Source: Amycolatopsis azurea DSM 43854 (GTDB lineage Bacteria > Actinomycetota > Actinomycetes > Mycobacteriales > Pseudonocardiaceae). Taken from it: 64,000 bases of DNA. The translations under genes and the position numbers were made by a program. Below, piece by piece: positions 145-61,151 of the stretch (position 1 is the first letter of the stretch; each line of letters begins with the position of its first letter). A model generated the notes under the pieces. The model saw nothing but the letters and a program-made list of their open reading frames with translations. It was not told the DNA's origin and did not search any database. Location of the stretch: NCBI RefSeq assembly GCF_001995215.1, contig NZ_MUXN01000012.1, positions 1 through 64,000 on the forward strand, in the 5' to 3' direction.

Positions 145-168
145 GCGATAGCAAAGGTCCCTTGCTCG
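145..168 (-). repeat. Family A repeat, single arm
   Basis: GCGATAGCAAAGGTCCCTTG followed by CTC. This is one arm of the dispersed hairpin element that recurs through the window. It lies just beyond the 3' end of the Lrp-type regulator gene, and no matching second arm is nearby. Confidence 0.85.
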
Positions 169-182
169 CCCCGCGGCGTCGC

Positions 183-629
183 TCAGCAGCTCTGCCGACC
201 GACCGCGCGCCGGCGGACAGGTGACGAGAAGACCAGCGAAGTCGTCGTCTCCCCATAGCGCTGCATCCGCTCTACGAGCTCTTCCAGCTCCGCTGTGTTC
301 CGGCAGGCGACCCTCACCAGCCAGCACTCGTCTCCCGTGACGTGATCGGCGTCGAGCACCTGGGGAAGCGCGAGGATGGTTTCGCGGAAGCGAGGCGTGT
401 CGAGGCTTCGCACCTTTGCCCGGACCATCGCCTCGATCGGGAGCCCGAGCTTGGTGAGATCGACGCTGGCCGAGTATCCGGTGATGATCCCCTTCTCCTC
501 GAGCCGACGAACCCGCTCGGTCACAGCCGGCGCCGACAGCGATACCCGGCGGCCGAGCTCGGAGAAAGTCAGCCGGCCGTCTGACTGGAGTAGTTCGAGC
601 AGCTGCCAGTCGAGATCATCGAGGTTCAC
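183..629 (-). CDS. Lrp/AsnC family transcriptional regulator
   Basis: 148 aa, the normal length for the family. An N-terminal winged helix-turn-helix (about residues 4-60, with the LLQSDGRLTFSELGRRVSLS region and the recognition helix APAVTERVRRLEEKG) is followed by an RAM-type effector-binding domain (about 65-140, containing VTGDECWLVRVA). Such proteins form octamers or dimers that bind amino acids and control nearby genes. It starts at a GTG with a GGAG four bases upstream. The gene is divergent from the rhodanese gene, so that gene is the likely target (inference). The effector cannot be read from sequence. Confidence 0.9.
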   Translation of the reverse strand: MNLDDLDWQLLELLQSDGRLTFSELGRRVSLSAPAVTERVRRLEEKGIITGYSASVDLTKLGLPIEAMVRAKVRSLDTPRFRETILALPQVLDADHVTGDECWLVRVACRNTAELEELVERMQRYGETTTSLVFSSPVRRRAVGRQSC

Positions 630-659
630 AGAACTCCAGGTCGATCGTCATCTCCGCCA

Positions 660-699
660 GGAATCTCCAGGCTAGTCGTCAGCGAGACCTGGAATCTCC
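660..699. promoter_or_regulatory. Candidate operator: GGAATCTCC repeated with about 31-bp spacing
   Basis: The divergent promoter region between the Lrp-type regulator and the rhodanese gene holds two GGAATCTCC copies (660-668 and 691-699), in contexts CCAGGAATCTCCAGG and CCTGGAATCTCCGATG. The spacing is three helical turns, which fits cooperative binding of an Lrp-type protein on one DNA face. Assignment to this regulator is inference. Confidence 0.4.
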
Positions 700-736
700 G
701 ATGTTGTGGATGATCACCGATCAGCAGGATTGAGGC

Positions 737-1189
737 ATGACGACCGAATCCCGCGTACTGACGTTCCCGGCCTTGGACAGCTTGACCGCGGCTGCGCTCC
801 TGCGCGCCGAGCTCGCCCTCGACGTCGACCCCGATGATCTCGTTCGCGACCTCGACTCCGGTTCTCAGCAGGGCTACATGATCGTCGAGACCAGGGCGCC
901 CGAGGCCTTCGCGACGGCCCGCATCCCCGGCGCGATCAATCTCCCGTACCGGGACATGACTCCCGAGTCGGTCAGCGAACTCGACCGCGATCTCGTCTAC
1001 GTCTGCTACTGCGAGAGCATCCACTGCAACGCCGCGACCAAGGGCGCCCTGAAACTCGCGGAACTCGGCTTCAAGGTCAAGCGCCTGTCCGGCGGCATCA
1101 CCGCCTGGCAAGCAGCCGGCTATCCCGTTGACCGGGACCTCCTCACTCCCGCCCTCACCTCCGCACCCTCCCCACGCTGCGCCTGCTGA
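737..1189 (+). CDS. Rhodanese-like domain protein
   Basis: 150 aa with one rhodanese fold at about residues 35-135. Diagnostic parts are YMIVETRAPEAFATARIPGA (the D/E-x-R-x3-E-F-x3-HIPGA block) and the active-site strand VYVCYCESIHCNAATK, whose last cysteine (HCN) sits where the catalytic Cys of the CxxxxR-type loop is expected. It ends with LSGGITAWQAAGYPV. Such proteins transfer sulfane sulfur to thiol acceptors in the cytoplasm. The tail (SPRCAC) adds two further cysteines. The gene is probably controlled by the divergent Lrp regulator. The acceptor is unknown. Confidence 0.88.
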   Translation: MTTESRVLTFPALDSLTAAALLRAELALDVDPDDLVRDLDSGSQQGYMIVETRAPEAFATARIPGAINLPYRDMTPESVSELDRDLVYVCYCESIHCNAATKGALKLAELGFKVKRLSGGITAWQAAGYPVDRDLLTPALTSAPSPRCAC

Positions 1190-1194
1190 CCAAG

Positions 1195-1252
1195 GGAGCA
1201 AGGGACCTTTGCTGTCACCGCCCCCGAGCGATAGCAAAGGTCCCTTGCTCTC
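1195..1252. repeat. Family A hairpin repeat, full
   Basis: Left arm GGAGCAAGGGACCTTTGCTG, right arm ATAGCAAAGGTCCCTTGCTC, with a C-rich loop. The outer stem is perfect and the inner part uses G-T pairing (GCTGTC against GATAGC). It fills the gap between two co-directional genes and lies 6 bases after the rhodanese stop. Confidence 0.9.
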
Positions 1253-1274
1253 CTGGCGGTCGTAGGCTGGGGTG

Positions 1275-2030
1275 GTGACCGCTCCCAAGTTGCTCGTCAT
1301 CCAGCCAGATGAATCAGATCCGATCGGCCCCCTCGGCGACTGGCTCACCGAGGCGGGAGCCGAGCTCGACATCAGGTTGCCACCCGAACAGGGCCTACCC
1401 GCCGATCTTGATGGGTACGCGGGCGTCGTCTGCCTCGGCGGAGGGATGGGCGCCAACGACGATGTCGCGCACCCGTGGCTCGCGGACGTGCGGAAGCTTC
1501 TTTCGAAGGCCGCGAGCGCGCGCATCCCAACACTCGCCATCTGCCTCGGTGGGCAGCTCCTGGCGGTGGCGCTGGGAGGTGGCGTCGCCACCGGCGATCA
1601 GGGACCTGAGGTCGGCCCAGGGCTTGTGTCCAAGAAGGACGCTGCCTGGACCGATCCGCTCTTCGCGGACCTGCCACTCATGCAGGACGTCCTCCAGTTC
1701 CACAACGACGCGATCACCAGGCTGCCCGCAGGTGCCGAGCTTCTCGCTTCCTCGCCGAGGTACGCCAACCAAGCTTTCCGATTCGACCGTTGTGCCTACG
1801 GTGTCCAGTTCCATATCGAGACGACGCCGGACGTGGTCCTCGACTGGGCGCGGCAGTCGCCGGAAATGGCGGAACTCACCCGGCCGGAGGTACTGACCCA
1901 GGAAAACCTCGCTCGGGTGCACGCCGATATCACCGAAACCTGGCGACCGTTCGCGCACCGCTTCGTCCGACTGGTGTCCGGCGACCTCGCTCCGGCTGCG
2001 GACCGTCAACGCACATTGCCGATGGCTTAA
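1275..2030 (+). CDS. Class I glutamine amidotransferase-like protein
   Basis: About 251 aa, similar to the stand-alone GATase1 proteins often labelled GMP synthase-like. Catalytic features: the nucleophile elbow AICLGGQLLA (Cys at about residue 90), and YGVQFHIETTPDVV, supplying the His and Glu of the triad. The oxyanion region CLGGGMGAND lies near the N-terminus. It lacks any synthetase domain, so it probably hydrolyses a glutamine-like or gamma-glutamyl substrate (inference). Two adjacent GTG codons are possible starts; 1275 is chosen because TAGGCT at 1263-1268 fits a -10 box for a leaderless transcript. No partner gene is adjacent. Confidence 0.82.
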   Translation: MTAPKLLVIQPDESDPIGPLGDWLTEAGAELDIRLPPEQGLPADLDGYAGVVCLGGGMGANDDVAHPWLADVRKLLSKAASARIPTLAICLGGQLLAVALGGGVATGDQGPEVGPGLVSKKDAAWTDPLFADLPLMQDVLQFHNDAITRLPAGAELLASSPRYANQAFRFDRCAYGVQFHIETTPDVVLDWARQSPEMAELTRPEVLTQENLARVHADITETWRPFAHRFVRLVSGDLAPAADRQRTLPMA

Positions 2031-2123
2031 CGACTTATGTCTCAAATGTGTATGGGTTATTAACACTCCGTCCTGACTGTCAGGTACCTTGCGAAGGGAG
2101 TTTCGAAGGGTTCGGAGGTCGGG

Positions 2124-3254
2124 GTGGAGCCCTCAGTGTTGGTCGTGCTCGTCGTCGTCACGGCCCTAATTTTCGATTTCACAAACGGTTTCCACGACAC
2201 GGCCAACTCGATGGCGACGTCGATCGCCACCGGGGCGTTGCGACCCAAGGTCGCGGTGACGATCTCCGCGGTCCTGAACCTGGTCGGAGCCTTCCTGTCG
2301 GTCGAAGTGGCCAAGACCATCTCGAATGGACTGGTCGACGACACCAAGATCGGACCGGCGATCGTGTTCGGTGGTCTGGTCGGGGCGATCATGTGGAACC
2401 TGGTGACCTGGTTCGTCGGACTGCCTTCCAGCTCGTCCCACGCGTTGTTCGGCGGCCTGATCGGCGCCACATGGGTGTCCGCCGGAACGGACTCTGTCCA
2501 TTTCGGAAAGATCGTCGAGAAGGTCCTGGTTCCGGCAGCGCTGTCGCCAGTCCTGGCTGGCCTCGTCGCGATGATCGTGACCTACTTCGTCTACCGGATC
2601 TTCGTCCGTCGCGGCCGCACCGCAGGCTTCCGGGTTGGACAGATCATCTCGGCTTCGCTGGTCTCGCTTGCCCATGGCACGAACGACGCGCAGAAGACGA
2701 TGGGCATCATCACGCTGACGATGATCACCGCTGGAACCCTCCCCGCCGGGTCCGGCCCGCCGCTCTGGGTGATCGTCAGCGCGGCGTTGGCGTTGGCGCT
2801 CGGCACCTACCTGGGCGGCTGGCGTATCACCTACACGCTGGGTAAGGGCCTGACGGACATCGATGGCCCGCAAGGCTTCGCCGCTCAGACCAGTTCGGCG
2901 GCGGTCATCCTCGCTTCGACGAACTTCGGCTTTCCGCTCTCGACGACCCATGTCTGTTCCGGAGGCATCGTGGGCTCTGGCGTGGGCAGAAACGAGTCCC
3001 CGGTGCGCTGGCGCACAGCCGGTCGCATGGTGATCGCCTGGTTGTTCACGCTTCCGGCGGCGGCCATCGTCGGTGCTGCGGCCGGTCTCGTGACCTCGAC
3101 GGGCACGGTGGGCACCATCGCCGTCGGCGTAGTCGGCCTGGCAGTCGGCATCGGGATCTACCTGCTTTCACGACGAAGCCCTGTCAACGCGGGCAGTTTC
3201 GCCGACCCCACCTCGACCGTTCCTGAACAGGAAGTCGGCAGGATCGCCGCCTAG
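2124..3254 (+). CDS. PiT family inorganic phosphate transporter
   Basis: 376 aa integral membrane protein with about ten hydrophobic segments. Both halves of the PiT repeat are recognisable: N-terminal DFTNGFHDTANSMATSIATG and GLPSSSSHALFGGLIG, C-terminal LAHGTNDAQKTMGIIT and FGFPLSTTHVCSGGIVGSG. These proteins import phosphate (often as metal phosphate) with protons or sodium at low affinity. The start is a GTG preceded by GGAGGTCGGG. No PhoU-like partner gene is adjacent. Family assignment is secure; ion coupling is not visible. Confidence 0.93.
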   Translation: MEPSVLVVLVVVTALIFDFTNGFHDTANSMATSIATGALRPKVAVTISAVLNLVGAFLSVEVAKTISNGLVDDTKIGPAIVFGGLVGAIMWNLVTWFVGLPSSSSHALFGGLIGATWVSAGTDSVHFGKIVEKVLVPAALSPVLAGLVAMIVTYFVYRIFVRRGRTAGFRVGQIISASLVSLAHGTNDAQKTMGIITLTMITAGTLPAGSGPPLWVIVSAALALALGTYLGGWRITYTLGKGLTDIDGPQGFAAQTSSAAVILASTNFGFPLSTTHVCSGGIVGSGVGRNESPVRWRTAGRMVIAWLFTLPAAAIVGAAAGLVTSTGTVGTIAVGVVGLAVGIGIYLLSRRSPVNAGSFADPTSTVPEQEVGRIAA

Positions 3255-3256
3255 AG

Positions 3257-3312
3257 AAGCAAGGGACCTTTGGTATCGCCGGGTGCCCGGCGATACCAAA
3301 GGTCCCTTGCTC
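3257..3312. repeat. Family A hairpin repeat, full (GGTATC variant)
   Basis: AAGCAAGGGACCTTTGGTAT pairs with ATACCAAAGGTCCCTTGC around a GGGTGCCC loop. Both arms carry the variant GGTATC in place of GCTATC, so the change is compensated. It starts within 3 bases of the phosphate-transporter stop codon. Confidence 0.92.
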
Positions 3313-3363
3313 CCTTGCGCGTCCGGCTGGTGCCTGGAGCAAGGGCGACTACGGTGGAAGCCG

Positions 3364-6336: not shown

Positions 6337-6356
6337 CCCCGCTGACCTGCGGGAAG

Positions 6357-6421
6357 CAAGCAAGGGACCTTTGCTGTCGCGTCGTCCACGCGCGGCAGGC
6401 GACAGCAAAGGTCCCTTGCTC
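6357..6421. repeat. Family A hairpin repeat, full (GCTGTCGC variant)
   Basis: Arms CAAGGGACCTTTGCTGTCGC and GCGACAGCAAAGGTCCCTTG flank a 23-base GC-rich loop. Both arms carry G/C at the position that is A/T in the common form, a compensating change. It lies 20 bases after the glnE stop, before a co-directional gene. Confidence 0.92.
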
Positions 6422-6900: not shown

Positions 6901-6922
6901 CCGCTCTGTCAGCTCAAAAGAA

Positions 6923-8517: not shown

Positions 8518-8584
8518 CGGGGCGGCGATATCGGGTAGTCGACCAGGGCGAATGTGTCCCGCGCCACCGGCATACCCTGGATGG

Positions 8585-9070
8585 GTGGCGAGATGGACCG
8601 GAGAATGGCTACCCGGAACCGGGGACGGAACGACGGCCGGTGGCGAGGGTACGCAGCGATGGCGCGGTGAGCGACTCGGCTTGCCCCAATCGGGTGTCGG
8701 CTCGGTCGCAGGCGGCGGGGCACGTCTCCTCGGGCTGATCGTCGACCTGGTCCTGGCCTCGCTCGTCACCACTCTTTTCGTGACGCCCAGCCTTCAGGAT
8801 CCCGCCGTCATGCAGACGTTCAACCTCTGGTCCGTGTGCGTCTGGGCGGCGATCACCGTCATCCCCGCCGCCTTCTTCGGGTTCACCCCCGGCATGGCAG
8901 TGGTCGGAGTCCGTGTCGCCAGGCTCGACGGCGCGCAAATGGTCGGAGTGTGGCGGGCGGTCGTACGGGCGGCACTGACCTTCCTGATCATTCCGGCCGC
9001 GATCCGCAATATCGACGGCCGAAGCTGGCTGGACCGGCTGACCGGGACCGTCGTGATCCGTATGCGATGA
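8585..9070 (+). CDS. RDD family membrane protein
   Basis: 161 aa. A soluble N-terminal stretch (ARWTGEW...RWRGERLGLPQSGVGSVAG) leads into an RDD domain at about 45-155. Three hydrophobic segments are seen (LLGLIVDLVLASLVTTLFV, WSVCVWAAITVIPAAFF, ALTFLIIPAAI), and the domain ends with RNIDGRSWLDRLTGTVVI. The function of RDD proteins is mostly unknown; some act in ion or proton transport. GTG 8585 is preferred because TACCCT (8573-8578) sits 6 bases upstream, fitting a leaderless mRNA. It is divergent from glnA, an arrangement recalled also from mycobacteria. Confidence 0.85.
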   Translation: MARWTGEWLPGTGDGTTAGGEGTQRWRGERLGLPQSGVGSVAGGGARLLGLIVDLVLASLVTTLFVTPSLQDPAVMQTFNLWSVCVWAAITVIPAAFFGFTPGMAVVGVRVARLDGAQMVGVWRAVVRAALTFLIIPAAIRNIDGRSWLDRLTGTVVIRMR

Positions 9071-9080: not shown

Positions 9081-9102
9081 GGAGCAAGGGACCTTTGCTT
9101 CC
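9081..9102 (+). repeat. Family A repeat, single arm
   Basis: GGAGCAAGGGACCTTTGCTT, one arm only. It lies 11 bases after the RDD gene stop and ahead of a convergent gene. Confidence 0.85.
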
Positions 9103-9134
9103 GCCGTGGGAAGCGGCCGCGGCACCGGCGATGT

Positions 9135-10133: not shown

Positions 10134-10185
10134 GCATCAGGGGTCCTTTGCTACCCGCACTGCGGTAGCAAAGGACCCCTGATGC
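10134..10185. repeat. Family A hairpin repeat, divergent variant
   Basis: GCATCAGGGGTCCTTTGCTA pairs with TAGCAAAGGACCCCTGATGC around a short C/G loop. The core sequence is GGGTCC rather than GGGACC, changed on both arms. It lies 8 bases past the 3' end of the DUF4191 gene. Confidence 0.88.
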
Positions 10186-10193: not shown

Positions 10194-10922
10194 TCAGCGG
10201 CGACGGATGGTGCGCTGGACGTTGCGCATCTTCGCGCCGGCAGGCATCGGGCCCTTGGGCATCGCCGCGCCGCGGTTGCCGAGGGCGGCCAGCTTCGCTT
10301 CCAGCGCGTCGACCTGCGCGGGCTTGAGGTTGCGCGGGAGCTTCATGAGGTAGCCCTGAAGCTTCTTCAGCGGCACCTGCTCGTCTTCGTTGCCGATGAT
10401 CACGTTGTAGATCGGGGTCTCACCGATCAAGCGGGACACCCGCTTCTTCTCCTGCGCGAGCAGGGACTTCACGCGGTGCGGCGCGCCTTCGGCGACGAGC
10501 ACGACACCCGGGCCACCGAGAACTCGGTGCACGGCGTCGAGCTGGGTAGTGGCCGCCACGGTCGGCGTCACCTTCCAGCGACCTCGCATGTTCTCGAGTG
10601 CCCAGGCCGCGGCGCCCGGCTGCCCGTCGGCCTTCGAGTACACGGTCTTCTGGACCCGCCTGCCGAAGATGATCACAGCGGCGAGCGCGCCGAGCAGAAC
10701 GCCCAGCGGCAGCACGACCCAGTGGACGTCGAAGATGAACCCGATGCCGAACACGACACCGGTGATGACCAGGAGCGATCCGACCATCCAGGGGATGAGC
10801 GCCTTGTCTTCCTTGCGCTGCATCTTGAAGGCCTCGAAGATCTGCCCGCGGCGAGCCTTGCTCGCGGCACGCTTCTCCTTCTTGGCCAGCTTCGCTGCTT
10901 CCTTGTCCTGCTTTCCCGCCAT
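10194..10922 (-). CDS. DUF4191 family membrane protein
   Basis: 242 aa. A very basic N-terminus ([20 protein letters not shown]) precedes two adjacent membrane segments ([20 protein letters not shown] and [20 protein letters not shown], about 45-90), then a soluble C-terminal domain (about 100-242) rich in basic residues. This matches the DUF4191 family, which sits near glnA/lipA in mycobacteria. No enzymatic motif is visible. ATG 10922 is chosen; a longer in-frame extension upstream is antisense to uvrD2 and is rejected. Function is unknown. Confidence 0.85.
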
Positions 10923-14366: not shown

Positions 14367-14422
14367 GGGGGAGCAGGGGACCTTTGCTATCGCCAGGCGA
14401 TAGCAAAGGTCCCCTGCTCCCC
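14367..14422. repeat. Family A hairpin repeat, full
   Basis: GGAGCAGGGGACCTTTGCTA pairs with TAGCAAAGGTCCCCTGCTCC with a minimal loop. The outer stem has CAGGGG/CCCCTG in place of CAAGGG/CCCTTG, a compensated change. It lies 6 bases after the preceding stop. Confidence 0.92.
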
Positions 14423-14463
14423 TTTGGGGCGTCGTGTGGCTCGGCGTGGTGTTCACTGGGGCA

Positions 14464-21203: not shown

Positions 21204-22310
21204 GTGACAGAGCCCTCGGAGCAGACCACAGCAACGCGGACCCGCAAAGGCTCCGCGACTGACCAGGACCGCTCCGAGCGGCGGCTGACCCGGCGCGGCT
21301 GGACGTTGCTGGTCAGCGGCGCGCTGTTCGTCGCGTTCGCGCTGGTCGGGTTCTTCATCCCGGTGCCGTATGTGGCCATCAGTCCCGGTCCGACCTACGA
21401 CACCCTGGGCAAGGACGCCGCCGGACAATCGGTGATCCAGGTCAACGGGCACGAGATCTTCCAGACCTCCGGCGAGCTGCGGATGACGACCGTCTCCCTG
21501 CGCGATGGCGGCATCACGCTGTTCAACGCGCTCGGGCTCTGGGCGAGTGGCCGGTACGCGCTGGCTCCGCGCGAGGAGTACTTCAAGCCGGGCGAGACCA
21601 ACGAGCAGGTCCGCCAGGAGAACATCCAGCAGCTGCAGGACTCGCAGACCGCTGCGCAGGTCGCCGCGCTGCGCCGCAAGTTCCCGGTGAAGGTGCTCGC
21701 GAAGACGATCGTCTCCGGCAGCCCTGCGGACAAGGTGCTCGCCCCGGGTGACCGGCTTCTGGTGGTCAACGGGCAGACGGTCAAGGAAGCGACTGACGTG
21801 CGGGCCGCGCTGAACGGGACGAAGCCCGGGCAGACCGTCCAGATCACGTTCAAATCCGACGGGCAGGCCGAGCGCACCGTGCCGCTCACCCTCGCGCAGC
21901 GGCCCGATGGCCCGGAAGGCTTCATGGGCCTGACCGCGGTGGACCGCGCAGACGTTCCCTTCGACGTGAAAATCTCGCTGCAGGACGTCGGTGGCCCGTC
22001 GGCGGGCCTGATGTTCGCGCTCGCGATCGTCGACAAGATGGAGCCCGGCGACCTCGCCGGTGGCAGGCACATCGCCGGGACGGGTGAGATCTCGGAGAAG
22101 GGCGTCGTCGGCGCGATCGGCGGCATCTCGTTCAAGGTGGTCGGCGCACGCGAGGCCGGTGCCACCGACTTCCTCGTGCCCGCGCACAACTGCGCCGAGG
22201 CGAAGACCGCCGCCCCCGATGGCCTGAACCTGATCAAGGTGTCCACGCTGGACGAGGCGATCGCGCAGCTCGAGAACCTCAAGGCGGGGCGGCCGACCGC
22301 CTCCTGCTGA
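21204..22310 (+). CDS. Membrane-anchored PDZ and Lon-like (S16) protease, YlbL type
   Basis: 368 aa. One N-terminal membrane segment (TLLVSGALFVAFALVGFFI, about 32-50), an extracytoplasmic PDZ domain (about 155-235, with IVSGSPADKVLAPGDRLLVV), then a Lon-type serine protease domain. The catalytic dyad is visible: Ser266 in DVGGPSAGLMFALAI and Lys311 in GGISFKVVGAREAG. That spacing is normal for S16. It probably degrades or trims envelope proteins; the target is unknown. GTG 21204 follows TACGCT (21191-21196) by 7 bases. Divergent from the DUF2342 gene. Confidence 0.9.
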   Translation: MTEPSEQTTATRTRKGSATDQDRSERRLTRRGWTLLVSGALFVAFALVGFFIPVPYVAISPGPTYDTLGKDAAGQSVIQVNGHEIFQTSGELRMTTVSLRDGGITLFNALGLWASGRYALAPREEYFKPGETNEQVRQENIQQLQDSQTAAQVAALRRKFPVKVLAKTIVSGSPADKVLAPGDRLLVVNGQTVKEATDVRAALNGTKPGQTVQITFKSDGQAERTVPLTLAQRPDGPEGFMGLTAVDRADVPFDVKISLQDVGGPSAGLMFALAIVDKMEPGDLAGGRHIAGTGEISEKGVVGAIGGISFKVVGAREAGATDFLVPAHNCAEAKTAAPDGLNLIKVSTLDEAIAQLENLKAGRPTASC

Positions 22311-22317: not shown

Positions 22318-22433
22318 GGGAGCAAGGGACCTTTGCTATCGCCCGCCGGTCTGTATGTAGAGAGAGCAAGGGACCTTTGGTATCGCCCAGCGTGCGTCTG
22401 GGGCTGGCGATAGCAAAGGTCCCTTGCTCTCTT
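22318..22433. repeat. Family A repeats: one single arm plus one full hairpin
   Basis: A single arm (22318-22344, GAGCAAGGGACCTTTGCTAT) is followed by a full hairpin (22362-22433) whose left arm reads GGTATC and right arm GATAGC, so the inner stem here has a mismatch. They fill the gap between two convergent genes and probably terminate both. Confidence 0.9.
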
Positions 22434-26430: not shown

Positions 26431-26520
26431 GAGCAAGGGACCTTTGCTATCGCGCCGGGGTGGCGGCGGTAGCGGGGGACCTTGGTATCGCCGGGGGAGC
26501 GGGGGACCTTTGCTATCGCG
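26431..26520 (+). repeat. Family A repeats: three single arms in tandem
   Basis: Arms at 26431-26454, 26471-26492 and 26498-26520, all in the same orientation, in a G-rich context. The middle arm has lost bases of the core. The last one overlaps the end of the flavin monooxygenase gene and provides its TAG stop codon. No pairing right arm exists here. Confidence 0.85.
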
Positions 26521-29597: not shown

Positions 29598-29609
29598 CCC
29601 GGACAGGTG

Positions 29610-29645
29610 CCCACGACCGGTTCCCCGCAACCGGTCGTGGGTTTT
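29610..29645 (+). terminator. Rho-independent terminator after the PadR gene
   Basis: CCCACGACCGGTT pairs with AACCGGTCGTGGG over 13 bp with a 6-base loop, followed by TTTT. It lies between the PadR stop and prfB. Confidence 0.85.
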
Positions 29646-29663
29646 GCCGTAACCTTGGCCGAC

Positions 29664-30767
29664 GTGAGTGATGAGTTCGATGCAGCACTGAAGGACCTGG
29701 CCGGCAAGCTGACGCAGATCGAGTCGGTGATGGACCTGGATGCGCTGCGTGCCCAGGTGGCCGAGCTGGAGGAACAGGCGTCCAGCCCGAACCTCTGGGA
29801 CGACCCCGAAGCGGCGCAGAAGGTCACCAGCCAGTTGTCCCACCGGCAGAGTGAGCTGCGACGCATCTCCGAGCTGCGGCAGCGGCTCGACGACCTGGGC
29901 GTCCTCTACGAACTGGCCGAGGCGGAGGGCGACTCCGCCAGTGTGGCCGAGTCCGAGACCGAGCTCACGGCCCTCACCAAGGACATCGACGGGCTCGAGG
30001 TCCGCACCCTGCTGTCGGGTGAGTACGACCCGCGGAACGCCGTGGTCACCATCCGGTCCGAAGCGGGCGGCGTCGACGCGGCCGACTGGGCCGAGATGCT
30101 GCTCCGGATGTACCTGCGGTGGGCGGAGCGGCACAACTACCCGACGGACGTCTACGACATCTCCTACGCGGAAGAGGCGGGCATCAAGTCCGCCACGTTC
30201 AAGGTGAGCGCTCCCTACGTCTACGGCACGCTCTCGGTCGAGCAGGGCACGCACCGGCTGGTGCGCATCTCGCCGTTCGACAATCAGAGCCGCCGCCAGA
30301 CCTCCTTCGCGCACGTCGAGGTGATGCCCGAGGTCGAGGAGGTCGACCACGTCGACATCCCTGAGAAGGACATCCGCGTCGACGTCTACCGCTCGTCCGG
30401 CCCCGGCGGCCAGAGCGTCAACACGACGGACTCGGCGGTGCGGATCACGCACATCCCGACCGGCGTCGTCGTTTCGTGTCAGAACGAAAAGTCGCAGCTG
30501 CAGAACAAGGCGGCCGCGATGAAGGTGCTCCAGGCGCGGCTGCTGCAGCGGAAGAAGGAAGAGGAGCGCGCCGAGATGGACGCGCTCAAGGACGGAGGCT
30601 CCAGCTGGGGCAACCAGATGCGTTCCTACGTGCTGCACCCGTACCAGATGGTCAAGGACCTGCGGACCGAGTTCGAGGTCGGCAACCCGTCGTCCGTGCT
30701 CGACGGCGAGATCGACGGCTTCTTGGAGGCGGGCATCCGCTGGCGCAAGCAGTCCGGAGCCGCGTAA
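29664..30767 (+). CDS. prfB: Peptide chain release factor 2
   Basis: 367 aa. It releases finished proteins at UGA and UAA codons. RF2 marks: the SPF anticodon-like tripeptide ([19 protein letters not shown]) and the GGQ loop ([20 protein letters not shown]), whose Gln enters the peptidyl-transferase centre. The reading frame is continuous: the autoregulatory +1 frameshift at an early UGA, known in many bacteria, is absent. GTG 29664 lies 8 bases after TAACCT (29650-29655). An upstream in-frame extension would read through the PadR terminator and is rejected. It leads the conserved prfB-ftsE-ftsX-smpB order. Confidence 0.96.
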
Positions 30768-30783: not shown

Positions 30784-30842
30784 ACCAAGGGACCTTTGCT
30801 GTCACTCTCCGGGAGAGAGTGACAGCAAAGGTCCCTTGCTCG
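30784..30842. repeat. Family A hairpin repeat, full (GCTGTCAC variant)
   Basis: CAAGGGACCTTTGCTGTCAC pairs with GTGACAGCAAAGGTCCCTTG; the loop adds CTCTCC/GGGAGAG pairing. Two stem positions differ from the common form and both are compensated. It lies between prfB and ftsE, 16 bases after the prfB stop. Confidence 0.92.
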
Positions 30843-40364: not shown

Positions 40365-40390
40365 GCCGACCTCCTGCTCGTCCGACCCGG

Positions 40391-40458
40391 GGGAGCAAGG
40401 GGCCTTTGCTATCGCTTCTCTCAACGTCGAGAGAAGCGATAGCAAAGGTCCCTTGCTC
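40391..40458. repeat. Family A hairpin repeat, long form with TCAACGTC loop
   Basis: GGAGCAAGGGGCCTTTGCTA extends through TCGCTTCTCT, loop CAACGT, then the complement back to TAGCAAAGGTCCCTTGCTCT. The stem exceeds 28 bp. It is one of the few family A copies in a divergent promoter region rather than at a gene end. Confidence 0.92.
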
Positions 40459-40469
40459 TCCTTGATGGC

Positions 40470-40516
40470 GACTGTGTGGATTTCGGTGCATCCAACGCAA
40501 CAAAATCCACACGGTC
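40470..40516. repeat. Family C hairpin repeat, copy 1
   Basis: GACTGTGTGGATTT pairs with AAATCCACACGGTC (one G-T) around a loop containing CATCCAACGC. The related copy at 52689-52735 carries the loop in the reverse orientation. Confidence 0.85.
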
Positions 40517-40543
40517 AGTACGCGTGGTCACCCAGCGTGTGTG

Positions 40544-40586
40544 GTGTGTGGATTTAGGGACACTCAACGTCCCTAAATCCACACAC
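40544..40586. repeat. Family B hairpin repeat, copy 1
   Basis: GTGTGTGGATTTAGGGAC pairs perfectly over 18 bp with GTCCCTAAATCCACACAC around the loop ACTCAAC. Copy 2 at 52631-52673 has two compensated stem changes and a reversed loop. Confidence 0.9.
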
Positions 40587-40596
40587 CCCCCCTCGT

Positions 40597-40619
40597 GATA
40601 GCAAGGGACCCTTGCTATC
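40597..40619. repeat. Family A repeat, compact palindrome
   Basis: GATAGCAAGGG-A-CCCTTGCTATC, an 11-bp perfect inverted repeat with one central base. It looks like the outer and inner stem parts of family A joined without the ACCTTT spacer. Confidence 0.75.
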
Positions 40620-46368: not shown

Positions 46369-47522
46369 TCACGGGTATCGGCGAGCTCACCACGAACGAC
46401 GCCGAACTGGGCAAGCTCCGCGACGCGGCGGTCGTCGTCGACGGCGAAGTGATCGCCTGGGTCGGCTCGGCGGCGGACGCGCCGGAAGCGGACGAGCGGA
46501 TCGACGTCGACGGCCGTGCGGTGCTGCCCGGCTGGGTGGACAGCCACACGCACCTCGTGTTCGCCGGCGACCGGACGGCCGAGTTCGAGGCGCGGATGGC
46601 CGGGAAGGCGTACAGCGCCGGGGGTATCGCGGTCACTGTCAATGCGACGCGATCGGCTTCCGACGAGCAGCTGGCGGCGAATCTGCGGCGTCACGTCGAT
46701 GAAGCGGCGAAGCAGGGGACGACCTGCCTGGAGACGAAGACCGGGTACGGGCTCAACGTCGAGGATGAAGTGCGTTCCGCGCGGATCGCCGCCGAGGTGG
46801 CCGACGAGGTCACCTTCCTCGGCGCGCACCTGGTGCCGCCGGGCGCCGACGCGGAGTCCTACGTGGACCTCGTCTGCGGCGACATGCTCGACGCCGTGGC
46901 GCCGCTCGTGCGGTGGGCGGACGTGTTCTGCGAGACCGGCGCGTTCGACGAGGCGCAGTCCGGGCGGGTGCTGAAGGCGGCGCGGGAACGCGGTCTCGGG
47001 CTGCGGGTGCACGGGAACCAGCTGGGGGAGGGGCCCGGGGTGCGGCTCGCCGTCGAGCTGGGGGCGGCGAGTGTCGACCACTGCACGTACCTGAGCGAAG
47101 CGGACGTCGAGGCTCTTGCCGCTTCGGACACCGTCGCGACCCTGTTGCCGGCGTGCGACCTGTCGACCCGGCAGCCGTTGGCGCCGGCGCGACGGCTGCT
47201 GGACGCGGGGGCGACGGTCGCGCTGGCGAGCAACGCGAATCCGGGCAGTTCGTACACGACGTCGATGGCGTTCTGCGTCACGACCGCGGTGCTGCAGATG
47301 CGGATGACGATCGACGAGGCGGTGTGGGCGGCGACGGCGGGTGGCGCTCGCGCGCTTCGGCGTGACGACGTGGGCTTCGTGCGGCCTGGGGCGCGCGCCG
47401 ACCTTCAGGTGCTGGAGGCGCCTTCGACGACGCACCTGGCGTACCGGCCCGGGGTGCCGCTGACGGCGGCCGTGTGGCGCCGCGGGGAGCTGCTGACCAG
47501 CGGTTTCGCGTCAAAGCGATAG
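46356..47522 (+). CDS. hutI: Imidazolonepropionase
   Basis: 388 aa from GTG 46356, overlapping hutF by 13 bases, with AAGGAG 11 bases upstream. Hydrolyses imidazolonepropionate to formimidoylglutamate. Marks: [23 protein letters not shown] (HxH), [54 protein letters not shown] and [16 protein letters not shown]. The last two codons and stop are AAG CGA TAG, where CGATAG belongs to a family A repeat arm, so the repeat supplies the stop codon. Confidence 0.95.
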
Positions 47523-47541
47523 CAAAGGTCCCTTGCTCCCC
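47516..47541 (-). repeat. Family A repeat, single arm overlapping the hutI stop
   Basis: GCGATAGCAAAGGTCCCTTG followed by CTCCC. Single arm in the gap between hutI and a convergent gene. The TAG of CGATAG is the hutI stop codon. Confidence 0.88.
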
Positions 47542-47547: not shown

Positions 47548-48306
47548 TCAGGAGGCCTGGTCGAGGGTCTCCTGGACCCGCTCACGCAGCGCGGGCGGGA
47601 GTTCGTCGAGCAGGTGGGACCACTGCTCGACGCGCTTCTCGCTCAGATGGGTGAGCAGGTCGAGCACCGGCGCCCACAGGTCCTCGTCGGCGGCCGCGAC
47701 CCGCAGGAGGCCGCGGAACCGGGTTTCGGAGAGCAGCCCGAGGACGTGATCGATCCGGCTCTTGTCGTCGAGGACGAACGCGATGCGGATCAGGGCCTCG
47801 TCGCCGATGACGCCGAGGGCCCTGCGCACCGTCGGGTCGGGCAGGTGGCCGACGAAGCGGCCGACGGTGATCCAGTCCTCGCGGCGCACCAGCTCCCCGG
47901 CGACCGCGACGACGGTGTCGAGCGGGATGCGCGCGATGATCGCGCTCGCCCGGCGCGGGTCCAACTCGGCCGCGACGTCGGACAGGAACTGCGGCTTCAG
48001 GCGCTTCGCGACGTCGACGCCTCGGGAGACGTCTACGAGCCCGGCGATCCGCGCGCACAGAAGCGGGCCGAAGACCTTCTCGGCGATCTTCGCGAGGATC
48101 GGGCTCGGTACGAGCTTGCTCGCCATCGCCATCCGTTCGAGGGCGGCGAGGTTGGCGTCGAACAGCGTGTCCGTGACCTGCTCGCGGAACGCCTGAAGCT
48201 CGGCCGCGTCCACGTTTTCCAGGTAGGACAGTCGCTCGGGGGCGGTGCCGAGGACGCGGGCGAGTTTGAGGATCTCCGCCTGCGCGGCGAAGTTTTCGGT
48301 GGTCAC
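47548..48306 (-). CDS. Uncharacterised helical protein, MgtE-N-like repeats
   Basis: 252 aa from GTG 48306, which overlaps the preceding stop. All helical. LDPRRASAIIARIPLDTVVAVAGELVRREDWITVGRFVGHL and the following HEAT-like helices resemble, weakly, the MgtE cytoplasmic N-domain superhelix. No membrane segment and no catalytic motif. Its neighbour at 48303-48512 is translationally coupled upstream, so the pair probably works together. Function unknown. Confidence 0.7.
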   Translation of the reverse strand: MTTENFAAQAEILKLARVLGTAPERLSYLENVDAAELQAFREQVTDTLFDANLAALERMAMASKLVPSPILAKIAEKVFGPLLCARIAGLVDVSRGVDVAKRLKPQFLSDVAAELDPRRASAIIARIPLDTVVAVAGELVRREDWITVGRFVGHLPDPTVRRALGVIGDEALIRIAFVLDDKSRIDHVLGLLSETRFRGLLRVAAADEDLWAPVLDLLTHLSEKRVEQWSHLLDELPPALRERVQETLDQAS

Positions 48307-48512
48307 AGGCCCACCACCTTGCGGATGGTGCCGCGCAGAAGGGCGGGTACGTACTTCAGGCCCTCTTCGCCCGCCTCGGCCAAGGCCTTGGCCTGGCGGT
48401 GGCGCGCGTCGCGCAACGCGTCGGAGAGGTCTTGCTTTTCGTTGTCGGCCAGCGCTTCGATGCCTGCCGGGACAGGACCGCCTAGCTGGCCGGTGAGTGT
48501 GCGCTCGGCCAT
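48303..48512 (-). CDS. Small uncharacterised protein coupled to the helical protein gene
   Basis: 69 aa. Starts ERTLTGQLGGPVPAGIEALA, then a charged helix (DNEKQDLSDALRDARHRQAK) and LKYVPALLRGTIRKVVGL. A GTGA overlap ties it to the next gene. I recognise no family. The GC-rich third positions and coupling make it likely real. Confidence 0.6.
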   Translation of the reverse strand: MAERTLTGQLGGPVPAGIEALADNEKQDLSDALRDARHRQAKALAEAGEEGLKYVPALLRGTIRKVVGL

Positions 48513-48616
48513 GGTCGATCATCATGCCTCATGAATCCGGCGGAGACCGGATGATCGGGGGACCTTTACTTTCGTCCATGGCGGACGGCTCGGCGCGACT
48601 TGTAGCGTCCAAGCCT

Positions 48617-52001: not shown

Positions 52002-52546
52002 TGCGAAAGGCGACGATCGGGGACGCGGCCATCGAGGTGATCGCGGCCGAAGGGATGCGGGGGCTGACGCACCGCGCGGTCGACCGGTTCGCCGGGCTGC
52101 CGTCGGGCTCGACGTCGTACTACGCGCGGACGCGGGCGGCGCTGCTGGAGCTGGCGATCTCGCGGATGGTCGAACTCGACGAGGTCACCCTCGACCCGCC
52201 GCCCGGCGGGCTGGCCGAGTACGTGGCGGGGTTCGCGCACGCGGCTATCACGGACGGGCGGACGCGGATGCTCGCGCGGTACGAGTTCGCGCTGGAGGCG
52301 ACGCGGCGGCCGGAGCTGCGGGAGGCCTACGACCGGGGCGGGCTGATGATCCGGCGGCGGTGTGCCGAGGTGCTGGCCGCCCGCGGCTCGGCGGAGCCGG
52401 AGCGGCACGCGCGGGTGCTCGTCGCGTGGCTGGACGGGACGATCTTCGACGCGCTGGCCGGGACCGGCTCGCTGGCGCCGCCGGATCTCGCGGAGCTGAC
52501 GGCGGGGGCGCGGGAGGTGCTGGCGGGGCTCGGGGTGGCGGGATAG
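52001..52546 (+). CDS. TetR family transcriptional regulator
   Basis: 181 aa from GTG 52001. N-terminal helix-turn-helix with KATIGDAAIEVIAAEGMRGLTHRAVDRFAGLPSGSTSYYARTRAALLE (about 3-50), then a helical ligand domain with LARYEFALEATRRPELREAYDRG, the TetR_C-type block seen in regulators of drug-related genes. Divergent from a flavin monooxygenase with twin operators between. Its stop TAG (GGATAG) lies in a family A repeat arm. Confidence 0.9.
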   Translation: MRKATIGDAAIEVIAAEGMRGLTHRAVDRFAGLPSGSTSYYARTRAALLELAISRMVELDEVTLDPPPGGLAEYVAGFAHAAITDGRTRMLARYEFALEATRRPELREAYDRGGLMIRRRCAEVLAARGSAEPERHARVLVAWLDGTIFDALAGTGSLAPPDLAELTAGAREVLAGLGVAG

Positions 52547-52624
52547 CAGGGGACCTTTGCTATCGCCGGGGGCGCTGACCTGCGGTTTTGAGTGCTGAGG
52601 GGAGCAAGGGACCTTTGCTGTCGC
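52542..52624 (+). repeat. Family A repeats: two single arms
   Basis: Arm at 52542-52567 (ATAGCAGGGGACCTTTGCTA), whose TAG is the TetR stop, and arm at 52600-52624 (GGAGCAAGGGACCTTTGCTG). Both have the same orientation. The region 52547-52828 holds only repeats and no gene. Confidence 0.85.
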
Positions 52625-52630
52625 GAGGGG

Positions 52631-52673
52631 GTGTGTGGAAATAGGGACGTTGAGTGTCCCTATTTCCACACAC
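52631..52673. repeat. Family B hairpin repeat, copy 2
   Basis: GTGTGTGGAAATAGGGAC pairs with GTCCCTATTTCCACACAC around GTTGAGT. Relative to the reverse complement of copy 1 (40544-40586) two stem bases differ on each arm and still pair. Confidence 0.9.
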
Positions 52674-52688
52674 CCCTCGATGGCCGGT

Positions 52689-52735
52689 GACTGTGTGGAT
52701 TTTGGTGCGTTGGATGACCAGAAATCCACACAGTC
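52689..52735. repeat. Family C hairpin repeat, copy 2
   Basis: GACTGTGTGGATTTTGG pairs with CCAGAAATCCACACAGTC with one bulge; loop GCGTTGGATG is the reverse complement of the copy 1 loop. So this copy is inverted relative to 40470-40516. Confidence 0.87.
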
Positions 52736-52755
52736 CCGGCGCCCACCTGCGCGAA

Positions 52756-52826
52756 GAGAGCAAGGGACCTTTGCTACCACTTGTCTCAACATCGAGAGAA
52801 GTGATAGCAAAGGTCCCTTGCTTCCC
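52756..52826. repeat. Family A hairpin repeat, long form with TCAACATC loop
   Basis: GAGAGCAAGGGACCTTTGCT continues to ACCACTTGTCT, loop CAACAT, then CGAGAGAAGTGATAGC and AAAGGTCCCTTGCTTC. Closest to the long copy at 40391-40458, with the changed inner pair A-T (ACCAC/GTGAT) partly compensated. It ends 2 bases before the stop of the ABC permease gene. Confidence 0.9.
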
Positions 52827-52828
52827 CG

Positions 52829-56444: not shown

Positions 56445-56445
56445 C

Positions 56446-58830: not shown

Positions 58831-59657
58831 CGCTCGGTAACCTGCGGCGGGGGCGGGATCCGGTAGCCGGACGGGCCGATGTTGCGGTTCAGCGAGGCGA
58901 GCCAGTCCCCGGACGAGATCATCTTCTGGATGGCCCTGGCCACGGCCGCCTTGCCCTCGGTGTCGTCCTTGCGCAGGCCGACGCCGTATTTCTCCTTCGA
59001 GAACGGCTTGCCGACGACCCTCAGCAACTCCGGGTTCTGCGCCACGTACCCGGCCAGGATGACGTCGTCGGTGGTCACCGCGTCCACCTGTCCGGCGAGC
59101 AGCGCCGTGACGCAGTCCTGATAGCGCGGGTACTCGATGAGCTGGACGGCCTGCGCGAACTTGTCGCGCACCTGCTCGGCCGAGGTGGTGCCGCCCACGG
59201 CGCACAGCTTGCGGCCGTTGAGGTTCTCGGGACCGGTGATGTCGGTCGACCGGAGCCGGACCAGCAGATCCTGGCCGACGTCGAAATAAGGGCCGGCGAA
59301 AGCGACGGCCTGTTTGCGTTTTTCGGTGATCGAGTAGGTCGCCACCATCAAATCCGTGATCCCGGAGGTGATGTCCGTCTCGCGGGACGACGGCCTGCTG
59401 TCGTGCCAGGTGATGTGATCCTCGTCGACGCCCAATTCGCTCGCGATGTACTTCGCCACGTCGACGTCGAAACCGACGTACCGGCCGTCGACCGTCTGTT
59501 TGGAGAGCCCCGGCTGGTCGAACCGGATTCCGATGGTGAGTTTGTTGAACGCGACGGCGCGGGCGACGAGGGAATCCGACGGACCGGCCTCTTTGCCGCA
59601 GGCCACCGCCGCTGTGACCAGCATCAAGCAGATCACCAGCAGGGCGCGTCCCCTCAT
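58827..59657 (-). CDS. Glutamate-type ABC transporter substrate-binding lipoprotein
   Basis: 276 aa. Lipoprotein signal: hydrophobic stretch ALLVICLMLVTAAVACGKE with the lipidated Cys at about residue 20. The bac_3 solute-binding fold shows LTIGIRFDQPGLS, YVGFDVDVAKYIASELGV, SGITDLMVATYSITEKRKQAVAFAGPYF and KYGVGLRKDD. It should capture a polar amino acid outside the membrane. No permease or ATPase gene is adjacent; instead it is coupled to hrpB. ATG 59657 has GGAGG upstream. Confidence 0.9.
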   Translation of the reverse strand: MRGRALLVICLMLVTAAVACGKEAGPSDSLVARAVAFNKLTIGIRFDQPGLSKQTVDGRYVGFDVDVAKYIASELGVDEDHITWHDSRPSSRETDITSGITDLMVATYSITEKRKQAVAFAGPYFDVGQDLLVRLRSTDITGPENLNGRKLCAVGGTTSAEQVRDKFAQAVQLIEYPRYQDCVTALLAGQVDAVTTDDVILAGYVAQNPELLRVVGKPFSKEKYGVGLRKDDTEGKAAVARAIQKMISSGDWLASLNRNIGPSGYRIPPPPQVTER

Positions 59658-59715
59658 CGGGTGCCTCCGTCCGCCGCCTCACGTTGTTCTCAGGGTTGGC
59701 GGCTAGCCTATGCCC

Positions 59716-60237
59716 GTGCGTAGACCGCCCCAAGTCGTACTCGACGCCGTGGGCACACTCGCCCGGCTCGGACTCGCCGCCGTCTGGTTGGTTTCCGGAG
59801 CGCTGAAGATCAGCGATCCGGGGCAGACCTACATCGCGGTGCAGGCTTTCGATGTCCTGCCGGACGGGATCGTGCGCCCGGTGGCGATCGGGATGCCGAT
59901 CGTCGAATTGGCGCTCGGCCTGCTCCTGCTCGCCGGGTTCGTGACCCGCTGGGTTTCGGTGCTGTCGGTGCTGCTGCTCGCGGTGCTCATCGCCGCGATC
60001 GCCCAATCCTGGGCGCGCGGGCTGAGCATCGATTGCGGCTGTTTCGGCGGCGGCGGTCAGATCGCCGCGGATCAGACGCAGTATCCGCAGGAGATCGCCA
60101 GGGACCTCGGGTTCGCCCTGCTCGGTGTCTGGCTGATCGTGCGGCCGCGGACCTGGCTGTCGGTGGACGGCTGGCTCGGGAACTCCGGGGCCCCCGCCGA
60201 CGACGACTATGTGGGTATCGCTGAAGGGAACGAATAA
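59716..60237 (+). CDS. DoxX/MauE-like redox-associated membrane protein
   Basis: 173 aa from GTG 59716 (ATG 59710 possible). TAGCCT at 59704-59709 would give a transcript starting at GTG 59716, so this start is preferred. Four membrane segments: LARLGLAAVWLVSGALKI, VRPVAIGMPIVELALGLLLLAG, VSVLSVLLLAVLIAAIAQ and DLGFALLGVWLIV. CGCFGGGG between TM3 and TM4 is the cysteine motif of MauE-type proteins, which pass electrons to a thioredoxin-like partner. That partner is the next gene, 2 bases away. Confidence 0.87.
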   Translation: MRRPPQVVLDAVGTLARLGLAAVWLVSGALKISDPGQTYIAVQAFDVLPDGIVRPVAIGMPIVELALGLLLLAGFVTRWVSVLSVLLLAVLIAAIAQSWARGLSIDCGCFGGGGQIAADQTQYPQEIARDLGFALLGVWLIVRPRTWLSVDGWLGNSGAPADDDYVGIAEGNE

Positions 60238-60239
60238 TC

Positions 60240-61034
60240 GTGGGTGGAGCTGAGCGCAACGCTCGGAAACGCAAGCAGCAGCAGACGGCGGCGCGCTCGG
60301 TGGCACAGGCCAGGGGCGTCGCGGGCGGCGACAAGAAGAAGGTCGTCGCGATCACCGTCGCGGTGGTCGTCCTCGCCGCGCTGGTGATCGGTGGCGTGAT
60401 CTGGACGACGTCCAGCAAGGACAGCACCGAGGGCAAGGTGATCGGCGCGCAGACGGGCACCTGGGGCCCTGGCGTCGTCGAGAAGCGCGACGGGGCCGCC
60501 GTGACCGCCGGTAAGCCCGAGGCGAAGAAGACCATCGACGTCTACGCCGACTTCCTGTGCCCGATCTGCAAGCAGTTCGAAGAGTCGTTCAAGGACCAGA
60601 TCCACGAGCAGGTGAACAACGGGACCCTCCAGGTCCGGTACCACATGCTGCCGATGCTGAACCAGCGTTCGGACCCGCCGGGCTACTCGCTGGACTCGGC
60701 CAACGCCGCGCTCGCCGCGGCCGACGCGGGCAAGTTCCTCGCCTTCCACGACGCGCTGTTCAAGGACCAGCCTCAGGAAGGCGGGCGCGGGTTCGACAAG
60801 GGGCAGCTGATCAAGCTCGGCCAGGATGTCGGCATCACCGATCCGGCGTTCGCGACGGCGATCAACACCGGCGTCTACGAACAGCAGATCCAGGACGCGT
60901 ACAAGAAGATCTCCACGGATCCGTCGCTGCAGCAGGACTTCGGCAACGGACCCGGCTTCGGCACGCCGACCGTGACCGCGAACGGTCAGGTCGTGAAGCT
61001 CGAGCAGGGCTGGCTCGAGAAGGTCCTCGGCTAG
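60240..61034 (+). CDS. Membrane-anchored DsbA-like thiol oxidoreductase
   Basis: 264 aa, GTG start 2 bases after the DoxX-like gene. Short basic N-terminus, one membrane anchor (VVAITVAVVVLAALVIGGVIW, about 36-56), then a thioredoxin-fold DsbA domain outside the membrane: VYADFLCPICKQFEESF (active-site Cys-Pro-Ile-Cys, about residues 104-107) and the cis-proline loop GTPTVTANG near the C-terminus. It probably forms or isomerises disulfides of exported proteins, with the MauE-like neighbour re-oxidising it (inference). Confidence 0.92.
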   Translation: MGGAERNARKRKQQQTAARSVAQARGVAGGDKKKVVAITVAVVVLAALVIGGVIWTTSSKDSTEGKVIGAQTGTWGPGVVEKRDGAAVTAGKPEAKKTIDVYADFLCPICKQFEESFKDQIHEQVNNGTLQVRYHMLPMLNQRSDPPGYSLDSANAALAAADAGKFLAFHDALFKDQPQEGGRGFDKGQLIKLGQDVGITDPAFATAINTGVYEQQIQDAYKKISTDPSLQQDFGNGPGFGTPTVTANGQVVKLEQGWLEKVLG

Positions 61035-61052
61035 CTTTCTTCGCGGGACTCG

Positions 61053-61101
61053 CGTGAAGGCCCCCTTCCCTCGACTGAGCCGAGGGAAGGGGGCCTTCAC
61101 G
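61053..61101. repeat. Family D1 hairpin repeat
   Basis: CGTGAAGGCCCCCTTCCCTC is the left arm of a 21-bp perfect stem; right arm GAGGGAAGGGGGCCTTCACG, loop ACTGAGC. It lies 18 bases after the DsbA-like gene stop and may act as its terminator. First of several unrelated hairpins in a 492-base region with no gene (61035-61526). Confidence 0.9.
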
Positions 61102-61127
61102 TTGTCCGGGGCGGTGGGCGCGTCAGG

Positions 61128-61151
61128 GCGATAGCAAAGGTCCCTTGCTCC
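61128..61151 (-). repeat. Family A repeat, single arm
   Basis: GCGATAGCAAAGGTCCCTTG followed by CTC, one arm only, inside the repeat-packed region. Confidence 0.85.

What the first reader, a model, noticed from the sequence alone, without database searches (positions are those of the whole stretch)
145..61151. Dense dispersed hairpin family (family A) at gene 3' ends, with covarying stems
An element of two inverted arms, core AGCAAGGGACCTTTGCTATC, occurs as nine full hairpins (about 1195, 3257, 6357, 10134, 14367, 22362, 30784, 40391, 52756), one compact palindrome (40597) and ten single arms (145, 9081, 22318, three at 26431-26520, 47516, 52542, 52600, 61128) in 64 kb. Nearly all lie between genes, mostly within 20 bases of a stop codon. 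The stems vary as GCTATCGC, GGTATCGC, GCTGTCGC, GCTGTCAC or GCTACC, usually with the matching change on the other arm. That is covariation and implies selection for pairing (RNA hairpin or single-stranded DNA), not just copy spread. Single arms, always of the same core, suggest breakdown or active half-units. No transposase is nearby. It could be a REP/BIME-like family, a terminator system or a protein-binding site.
Basis: partly seen in the sequence, partly recalled or inferred. Interest (0 to 1): 0.8.

Follow-up and report, generated by a model that had tools for sequence, protein, structure and literature searches.

The report
REPIN-like gene-end hairpins in Amycolatopsis
A short, slowly changing DNA word sits, often in inverted pairs, just after the ends of many genes in a group of soil bacteria, where it most likely forms hairpins that end transcription; it has kept its places across related species and drifted into lineage dialects, with no sign of the enzyme that normally spreads such repeats.

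Summary
The core AGCAAGGGACCTTTGCT matches 27 times in the window (0 expected) and 149 times in the 9.2-Mb genome (control 1). Nineteen of 80 genus genomes carry it in 57-102 exact copies; G004, an early-branching congener, and G264, another genus, carry related dialects. Copies are hairpins mostly just after stop codons; 31 of 62 clusters lie between convergent genes and tails are T-enriched. Of 180 locus-by-relative cells, 173 keep the element. The core changes five to seven times more slowly than its flanks. In G063, 51 of 83 copies crowd 5% of the chromosome and none lie in half of it. The Y1/RAYT transposase family is absent from 80 genomes. Best reading: a RAYT-less, REPIN-like palindrome family now serving as bidirectional terminators or 3'-end hairpins. 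Termination itself is inferred. It is a new variant of a known kind.

The parts
145..169 (-). single arm, 16 nt after the stop of the AsnC-type gene 183-629 (-)
1195..1251 (.). two-arm hairpin after the rhodanese-domain gene 737-1189
3257..3312 (.). two-arm hairpin after the phosphate transporter gene 2124-3254
6357..6421 (.). two-arm hairpin after the gene ending at 6336 (glnE by size and context, recalled); G004 and G264 also have an element after this gene
9081..9104 (+). single arm after the RDD-family gene 8552-9070; its flanks change in step in relatives (GGAAGC..GCTTCC, GGGAGC..GCTCCC, GAGAGC..GCTCTC)
10134..10185 (.). two-arm hairpin, variant core ATCAGGGGTCC, after the minus-strand ORF ending at 10194
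14367..14423 (.). two-arm hairpin, spacing 30 nt, after a stop at about 14360 (read by eye)
22318..22430 (.). three-arm array (+ + -) after the PDZ/Lon_C gene 21204-22310
26431..26520 (+). two good arms and one degenerate arm after a tRNA-Met gene; the minus ORF whose stop is at 26513 ends within the last arm
30784..30842 (.). two-arm hairpin after the release-factor gene 29607-30767 (PCRF and RF-1 domains)
40391..40459 (.). two-arm hairpin in a divergent region (exception)
40597..40619 (.). compact palindrome, same divergent region
47516..47539 (-). single arm, 10 nt after the stop of gene 47548-48525 (-)
52542..52566 (+). single arm at the end of a plus-strand ORF (by eye)
52600..52624 (+). 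single arm
52756..52825 (.). two-arm hairpin closing the intergenic group 52545-52825
61128..61151 (-). single arm after a conventional hairpin terminator; not compared with relatives (outside the fetched regions)

Best explanation
Family A is a REPIN-like family of quasi-palindromic 17-nt words, as inverted pairs, single arms or short arrays. It sits mostly just downstream of stop codons and most likely works as a bidirectional transcription terminator and 3'-end hairpin. Shown here: place, hairpin potential, T-enriched pyrimidine tails, persistence at orthologous 3' ends, a slowly changing core, and lineage dialects. Inferred: that RNA polymerase stops there or that the hairpin protects mRNA; that the family first spread by transposition; that its enzyme has been lost or is not a Y1/RAYT protein; and that an unknown recognition step, or homogenisation between copies, holds the core and moves dialects together.
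For: In 450 kb of this genome, chosen because it holds copies: 62 clusters, 31 convergent, 22 tandem, 4 divergent, 4 inside called genes, 1 at an edge, against background gaps of 49, 142 and 71 (convergent, tandem, divergent); 40 of the 58 with a stop distance are within 30 nt after a stop (convergent enrichment p 1e-7). The 21 plain two-arm hairpins average -53 kcal/mol; 25 of 42 eight-nt tails hold at least 3 T against 12% of random 8-mers, and 11 of 20 tails on the sense side of a near stop. Three or more U in 8 was the U-rich cut-off in S. clavuligerus (PMC8269248, passages). Core difference per pair of genomes 0.027 against 0.132 upstream and 0.193 downstream with gaps allowed (about 0.33 and 0.47 without gaps), over 22 orthologous arms. 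Presence in relatives: 173 of 180 cells, plus 7 of 7 in G012. Ends with an element in G004 have one here in 13 of 18 cases against 14 of 93 ends without; G264 8 of 14 against 16 of 104; tandem ends alone 5 of 6 against 3 of 62, and 4 of 10 against 3 of 67.
Against: No transcript data. Single-arm orientation is mixed: 10 sense and 1 antisense among the 11 single arms with exactly one stop within 30 nt (a cut chosen after seeing the list), but 13 sense and 16 antisense when all 29 with any nearest stop are taken. The 40388-40619 group lies between divergent genes, and a further arm-like match near 48546 in 8 relatives lies by gene starts. A control hairpin family is spread over the whole chromosome, so a plain terminator role does not explain the crowding of family A. 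No G-U asymmetry in stems. At the ends of the genes ending at 6336 and 30767, outgroup hairpins are weak (-23 to -33 kcal/mol), while at 9070 and 22310 the six outgroups have -30 to -54; other ends span about -10 to -57, so this comparison is not decisive. Pairing alone would not hold the core sequence.
Confidence: 0.55

Rival explanations
1. A selfish miniature element (REPIN or MITE type) with no host role, which inserts beside stop codons; the pattern reflects target choice and old spread.
For: REPIN architecture. In the G004 stretches fetched, 36 of 41 exact-pitch arrays are three arms, and the 33 that could be oriented alike have a position-specific consensus without element-by-element covariation, as expected of copies of one 77-nt element. 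Private insertions exist: 5 of 85 mappable clusters in named relatives, at four sites, are absent here, 51 could not be mapped. G052 and A. orientalis each have one directly beside the stop of the same gene (window 35706), the A. orientalis copy flanked by an 8-bp direct repeat.
Against: No Y1_Tnp family in 80 genomes. Turnover is low (80 of 85 shared). The core changes five to seven times more slowly than its flanks at orthologous sites, which neutral relics would not do.
Confidence: 0.25
2. Binding sites for a sequence-specific DNA-binding protein, for chromosome organisation or an uptake-like word; hairpins are incidental.
For: Slow 17-bp quasi-palindrome; crowding in G063 (51 of 83 copies in 4.9%, none in 52%); exact 30-nt pitch in G004 also between same-orientation arms (81 of 83 neighbour distances in the stretches fetched) and in all 24 arm pairs listed for G264; lineage-wide dialect shift in single and paired arms.
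Against: Strong 3'-end and convergent bias; arms matched by double changes in the core. The second cluster lies 3.1-4.3 Mb from dnaA in G060, not about 1.2 Mb as in G002 and G076. No candidate protein was identified.
Confidence: 0.15
3. Covarying stems arise by template-switch mutation in palindromes rather than by selection (not exclusive with the others).
For: Matched double changes on single branches in the core, four of seven at one locus, and no G-U bias; mechanism described in PMC8794818 (abstract).
Against: Does not explain place or core conservation in single arms.
Confidence: 0.3

Closest known systems
REPINs / REP elements with RAYT transposases (PMC3116915, PMC3733652; passages)
   Same: Short palindromic words, inverted pairs that form hairpins, singlets and higher-order arrays, mostly extragenic, lineage-specific sequence classes, an alternative clover fold (legend of a supplementary figure).
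   Different: No Y1/RAYT family in 80 genus genomes, no consistent GTAG or CGTC tag. The passages of PMC3733652 name other phyla, and the word actinobacteria does not occur in its main text. Crowding in part of the chromosome; exact 30-nt arrays in G004 and G264; single arms retained.
Neisserial DNA uptake sequences as inverted pairs in terminators (PMC2397512, passages)
   Same: [quoted passage not shown] dialects between lineages (PMC3630211, search listing and start of abstract only).
   Different: About 60-200 copies per genome here, crowded in part of the chromosome, against one composite DUS per about 1.5 kb in meningococci; 17-nt quasi-palindrome; no evidence on uptake was sought.
Hairpin terminators of GC-rich Actinobacteria (PMC8269248, passages)
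   Same: 3'-end stem-loops, many with weak U tracts.
   Different: In the passages seen they are not described as one repeated sequence family; here one word recurs.

Membership tests
REPIN / REP (GTAG class) | Inverted pairs of short palindromes forming a hairpin | tested here: met
REPIN / REP (GTAG class) | RAYT (Y1 tyrosine transposase) in the genome | tested here: not met
   PF01797 in 0 of 80 genus genomes, found in 5 of 14 control genomes; G264 not tested
REPIN / REP (GTAG class) | GTAG (or CGTC) tetranucleotide tag at one end | tested here: not met
   94 arms: within 8 nt of the core ends, GTAG outer 6, CTAC inner 1, CGTC inner 5, GACG outer 2 and inner 1
REPIN / REP (GTAG class) | Within-genome mobility | tested here: inconclusive
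   80 of 85 mappable clusters shared, 5 private; 51 unmapped; one private insertion in G052
Intrinsic terminator | Stable hairpin downstream of genes | tested here: met
Intrinsic terminator | U-rich tract after the hairpin | tested here: inconclusive
   25 of 42 tails with at least 3 T in 8 nt, 11 of 20 on the sense side; tails are pyrimidine-rich, not pure U
Intrinsic terminator | Transcripts end there | not testable with these tools
   no RNA data held
DNA uptake sequence | Promotes uptake in transformation | not testable with these tools
   none
MITE | Target-site duplication | tested here: inconclusive
   8-bp direct repeat at one A. orientalis insertion; by eye none at the G052 insertion or at the site held by L018 and L081

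The most novel reading that the evidence does not exclude
A word-based 3'-end system with its own unknown recognition factor: arms of one quasi-palindromic word are set in 1-, 2- or 3-arm arrays that fold as hairpins or junctions at gene ends, crowded in one chromosomal region, with factor and word changing together in lineage dialects, and spread without a RAYT.
Probability: 0.2. Interest if true: 0.82.

Novelty: new variant of a known kind. Interest (0 to 1): 0.62.

Why it matters
It is a REPIN-like population in Actinobacteria without the transposase thought to make such populations, yet retained at orthologous gene ends and changing dialect in concert. That makes testable whether such repeats persist because the host uses them, and what, other than a RAYT, spreads or homogenises them. 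It could supply natural terminators for GC-rich antibiotic producers, and it warns that covarying stems in repeats are not by themselves proof of selection for RNA pairing.

Tried and rejected
RAYT-driven REP family: rejected as a member, since PF01797 is absent from all 80 genus genomes and there is no consistent tag.

Symmetry about oriC: G063, G002 and G076 suggested clusters near 1 Mb on both sides of dnaA (lists for G002 and G076 are cut), but in G060 the second cluster lies 3.1-4.3 Mb from dnaA, so I dropped a functional ori-distance reading.

Core-versus-accessory explanation for the crowding: not supported by one control, a hairpin motif spread over the whole G063 chromosome.

RNA-only reading: no sense-strand G-U excess, and G004 triples after plus-strand genes occur as both ++- and +--.

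Three-way-junction model for the G004 triple: consensus halves fit it (adjacent halves 71% and 74%, closing halves 68% Watson-Crick at the variable positions; self-pairing 8-39%, other non-model pairs 30-48%), but minimum-energy folds are a junction in only 7 of 36 on the given strand and 5 of 36 on the reverse, and shuffles between elements show no covariation. Kept only as a possibility.

Helical phasing of arm spacing: peaks at 30, 36-37, 40, 47 and 57 nt, orthologues not collapsed, so no claim.

Viral origin: one exact match in IMG/VR, which I judge not above chance. Rfam at gathering thresholds: only tmRNA and two tRNAs in the window.

Prior description: paper searches showed none of this word or of such repeats in Amycolatopsis. 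Only open-licence PMC text was searched; for 59 I saw 10 of 26 listed papers and for 85 10 of 49; the 10 seen for 59 look unrelated by title.
Full report
What is there. The genome, 9.2 Mb in 54 contigs, holds 149 matches at up to 2 mismatches and 1 of the reversed control. Exact copies occur in 20 of 80 genomes of the genus: 19 with 57-102 copies each and G004 with 9. I call these the A. orientalis group; that name is recalled. A degenerate form finds 27 of 390 genomes of the family: the 19, G004 (194 copies), G264 of another genus (42 copies), and six genomes with 1 or 2.

Anatomy. Two-arm elements are long hairpins: purine-rich foot, core, a short extension (about A/G-T/C-C-G/A-C), a variable loop, then the mirror image. 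Each core is itself a quasi-palindrome, so a single arm can fold alone; after the gene ending at 9070 the single arm's flanks change in step in relatives (GGAAGC..GCTTCC, GGGAGC..GCTCCC, GAGAGC..GCTCTC). In G264 the 53 arms listed form 24 inverted pairs, all with starts 30 nt apart, and 5 single arms. In the G004 stretches fetched, 41 arrays are 36 triples, 4 pairs and one of six, and 81 of 83 neighbour distances are 30 nt.

Place. In 450 kb of this genome (the window plus 20 fetched stretches chosen because they hold copies), 62 clusters lie 31 in convergent, 22 in tandem and 4 in divergent gaps, 4 inside called genes and 1 at an edge; background gaps of 20 nt or more are 49, 142 and 71 (home-made gene caller). 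Forty of the 58 clusters with a stop distance are within 30 nt after a stop. Single arms are mixed: 10 of the 11 with exactly one stop within 30 nt are sense (a cut chosen after seeing the list), but over all 29 by nearest stop at any distance it is 13 sense and 16 antisense. The arm strand folds better than its complement in 31 of 32. The 21 plain two-arm hairpins average -53 kcal/mol; 25 of 42 tails on either side, and 11 of 20 on the sense side of a near stop, hold at least 3 T in 8 nt against 12% of random 8-mers.

Persistence. Orthologous regions of 13 relatives were compared (12 of about 60 kb, G012 34 kb). Of 15 window loci in 12 relatives, 173 of 180 cells hold the element, and 7 of 7 in G012; the seven gaps are in G013, G044, G023, G060 and G002. 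Over 22 orthologous arms the core differs at 2.7% of sites per pair of genomes; the 30 nt upstream at 13.2% and downstream at 19.3% when gaps are allowed, and about 33% and 47% without gaps, which overstates it because of indels. Of 85 clusters in named relatives that map to the fetched stretches here, 80 are shared and 5, at four sites, are missing here; 51 could not be mapped. At the stop at window 35706, G052 has a clean 63-nt insertion and A. orientalis one flanked by an 8-bp direct repeat, while none of the other clade regions has a match there. In G004, 13 of 18 mapped 3' ends with an element have one here too, against 14 of 93 ends without; in G264, 8 of 14 against 16 of 104. For tandem ends it is 5 of 6 against 3 of 62 and 4 of 10 against 3 of 67; for convergent ends 8 of 12 against 11 of 31 (p 0.07) and 4 of 4 against 13 of 36 (p 0.03). 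These stretches too were chosen because they hold copies. With G264 set as outgroup, G004 branches outside a group made of the clade and a sister lineage whose six fetched regions hold at most one match. So either the set is old and was lost in the sister lineage, or the same ends are chosen again and again; the 35706 site suggests that gain at one end can recur.

Dialects. The extension is mostly ATCGC in G000, G033, G002, G076 and G049, mixed in G052 and G063, ACCGC in G025 and G044, and ACCAC in G019, G023 and G060, at the same loci and in single arms too; arms 9083 and 22365 do not follow. Among copies matching AGCAAGGGACCTTTGCTRYCRC, the second extension base is C in 72 of 78 of G060, 0 of 34 of G049 and 1 of the 38 listed (of 56) of G076. 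Pairing alone does not explain this.

Covariation. On the clade tree, 7 of 19 left-arm core changes have a matching change on the right arm on the same branch, against 1 of 114 when arms of different loci are compared; the seven lie at three loci, four of them at 1196. In the extension it is 10 of 73 against 27 of 438 (seven loci, 12 or 13 genomes each). Sense-strand G-U and A-C mismatches are about equally common (31 and 27 distinct cases, six loci). Template switching could make matched double changes (PMC8794818, abstract). In 33 G004 triples there is no covariation beyond the shared consensus at the positions tested.

Region. In the single-contig genome G063, 51 of 83 copies lie between 872 and 1,266 kb (4.9% of the chromosome) and none between 2.11 and 6.24 Mb. 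One control motif (GTGAAGGSSCCCTTC) has 4 and 11 of its 45 copies there; with near copies collapsed, 36 of 61 against 4 of 34 loci, and 0 of 61 against 8 of 34. Other genomes are less strict: G060 has 17 of 78 copies 3.1-4.3 Mb from dnaA. In G264, 28 of 53 arms lie in 0.3 Mb of contig C2, and stretches from there carry orthologues of window genes; 31 places in the G004 region orthologous to the window match at up to 3 mismatches. Why the family crowds one region is unexplained.

Mechanism. I hold it most likely that these are bidirectional terminators or 3'-end hairpins made from an old REPIN-like family. Place, fold, tails and persistence are shown; termination, the original mobiliser and the reason for the slow core are inferred. 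The family fails two defining features of REP/REPIN elements that I could test, the RAYT and the tag, so I do not file it as a REPIN, though it is built like one.

Noticed in passing
window 40471-40589 and 52630-52736: Another hairpin family (GTGTGTGGATTT...AAATCCACACACC). Three segments of the hairpin block at 40388-40595 recur inverted within 52622-52828 at 88-90%, like a mosaic element.
   Followed up: partly
window 61055-61100: Conventional terminator of the GTGAAGGCCCCCTTC type; 45 matches of the motif over the whole G063 chromosome.
   Followed up: partly
window 61160-61493: Repeats GCAAGTAGAGGACGAA and two further hairpins (61238-61319 and about 61345-61400) in one intergenic region, the second again with arms that are themselves palindromic.
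   Followed up: no
G008 and G048, after the orthologue of gene 21204-22310: A different long hairpin family (CCGTGAAGGGC...GAATCAGATTC...GCCCTTCACGG) stands at the end where the clade has family A.
   Followed up: no
L264 198-364 (G004 C106:117547-117713): A six-arm array at exact 30-nt pitch, all arms in the same orientation.
   Followed up: no
   Followed up: no
window around 48546-48573 and 8 relatives: A conserved arm-like match (AGCAGGGGACCTTTACT in 8 relatives, more diverged here) close to the starts of two divergent genes.
   Followed up: no
window 22321-22412 and related loci: Spacings between neighbouring arms peak near 30, 36-37, 40, 47 and 57 nt in both direct and inverted arrangement; orthologues not collapsed.
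   Followed up: partly
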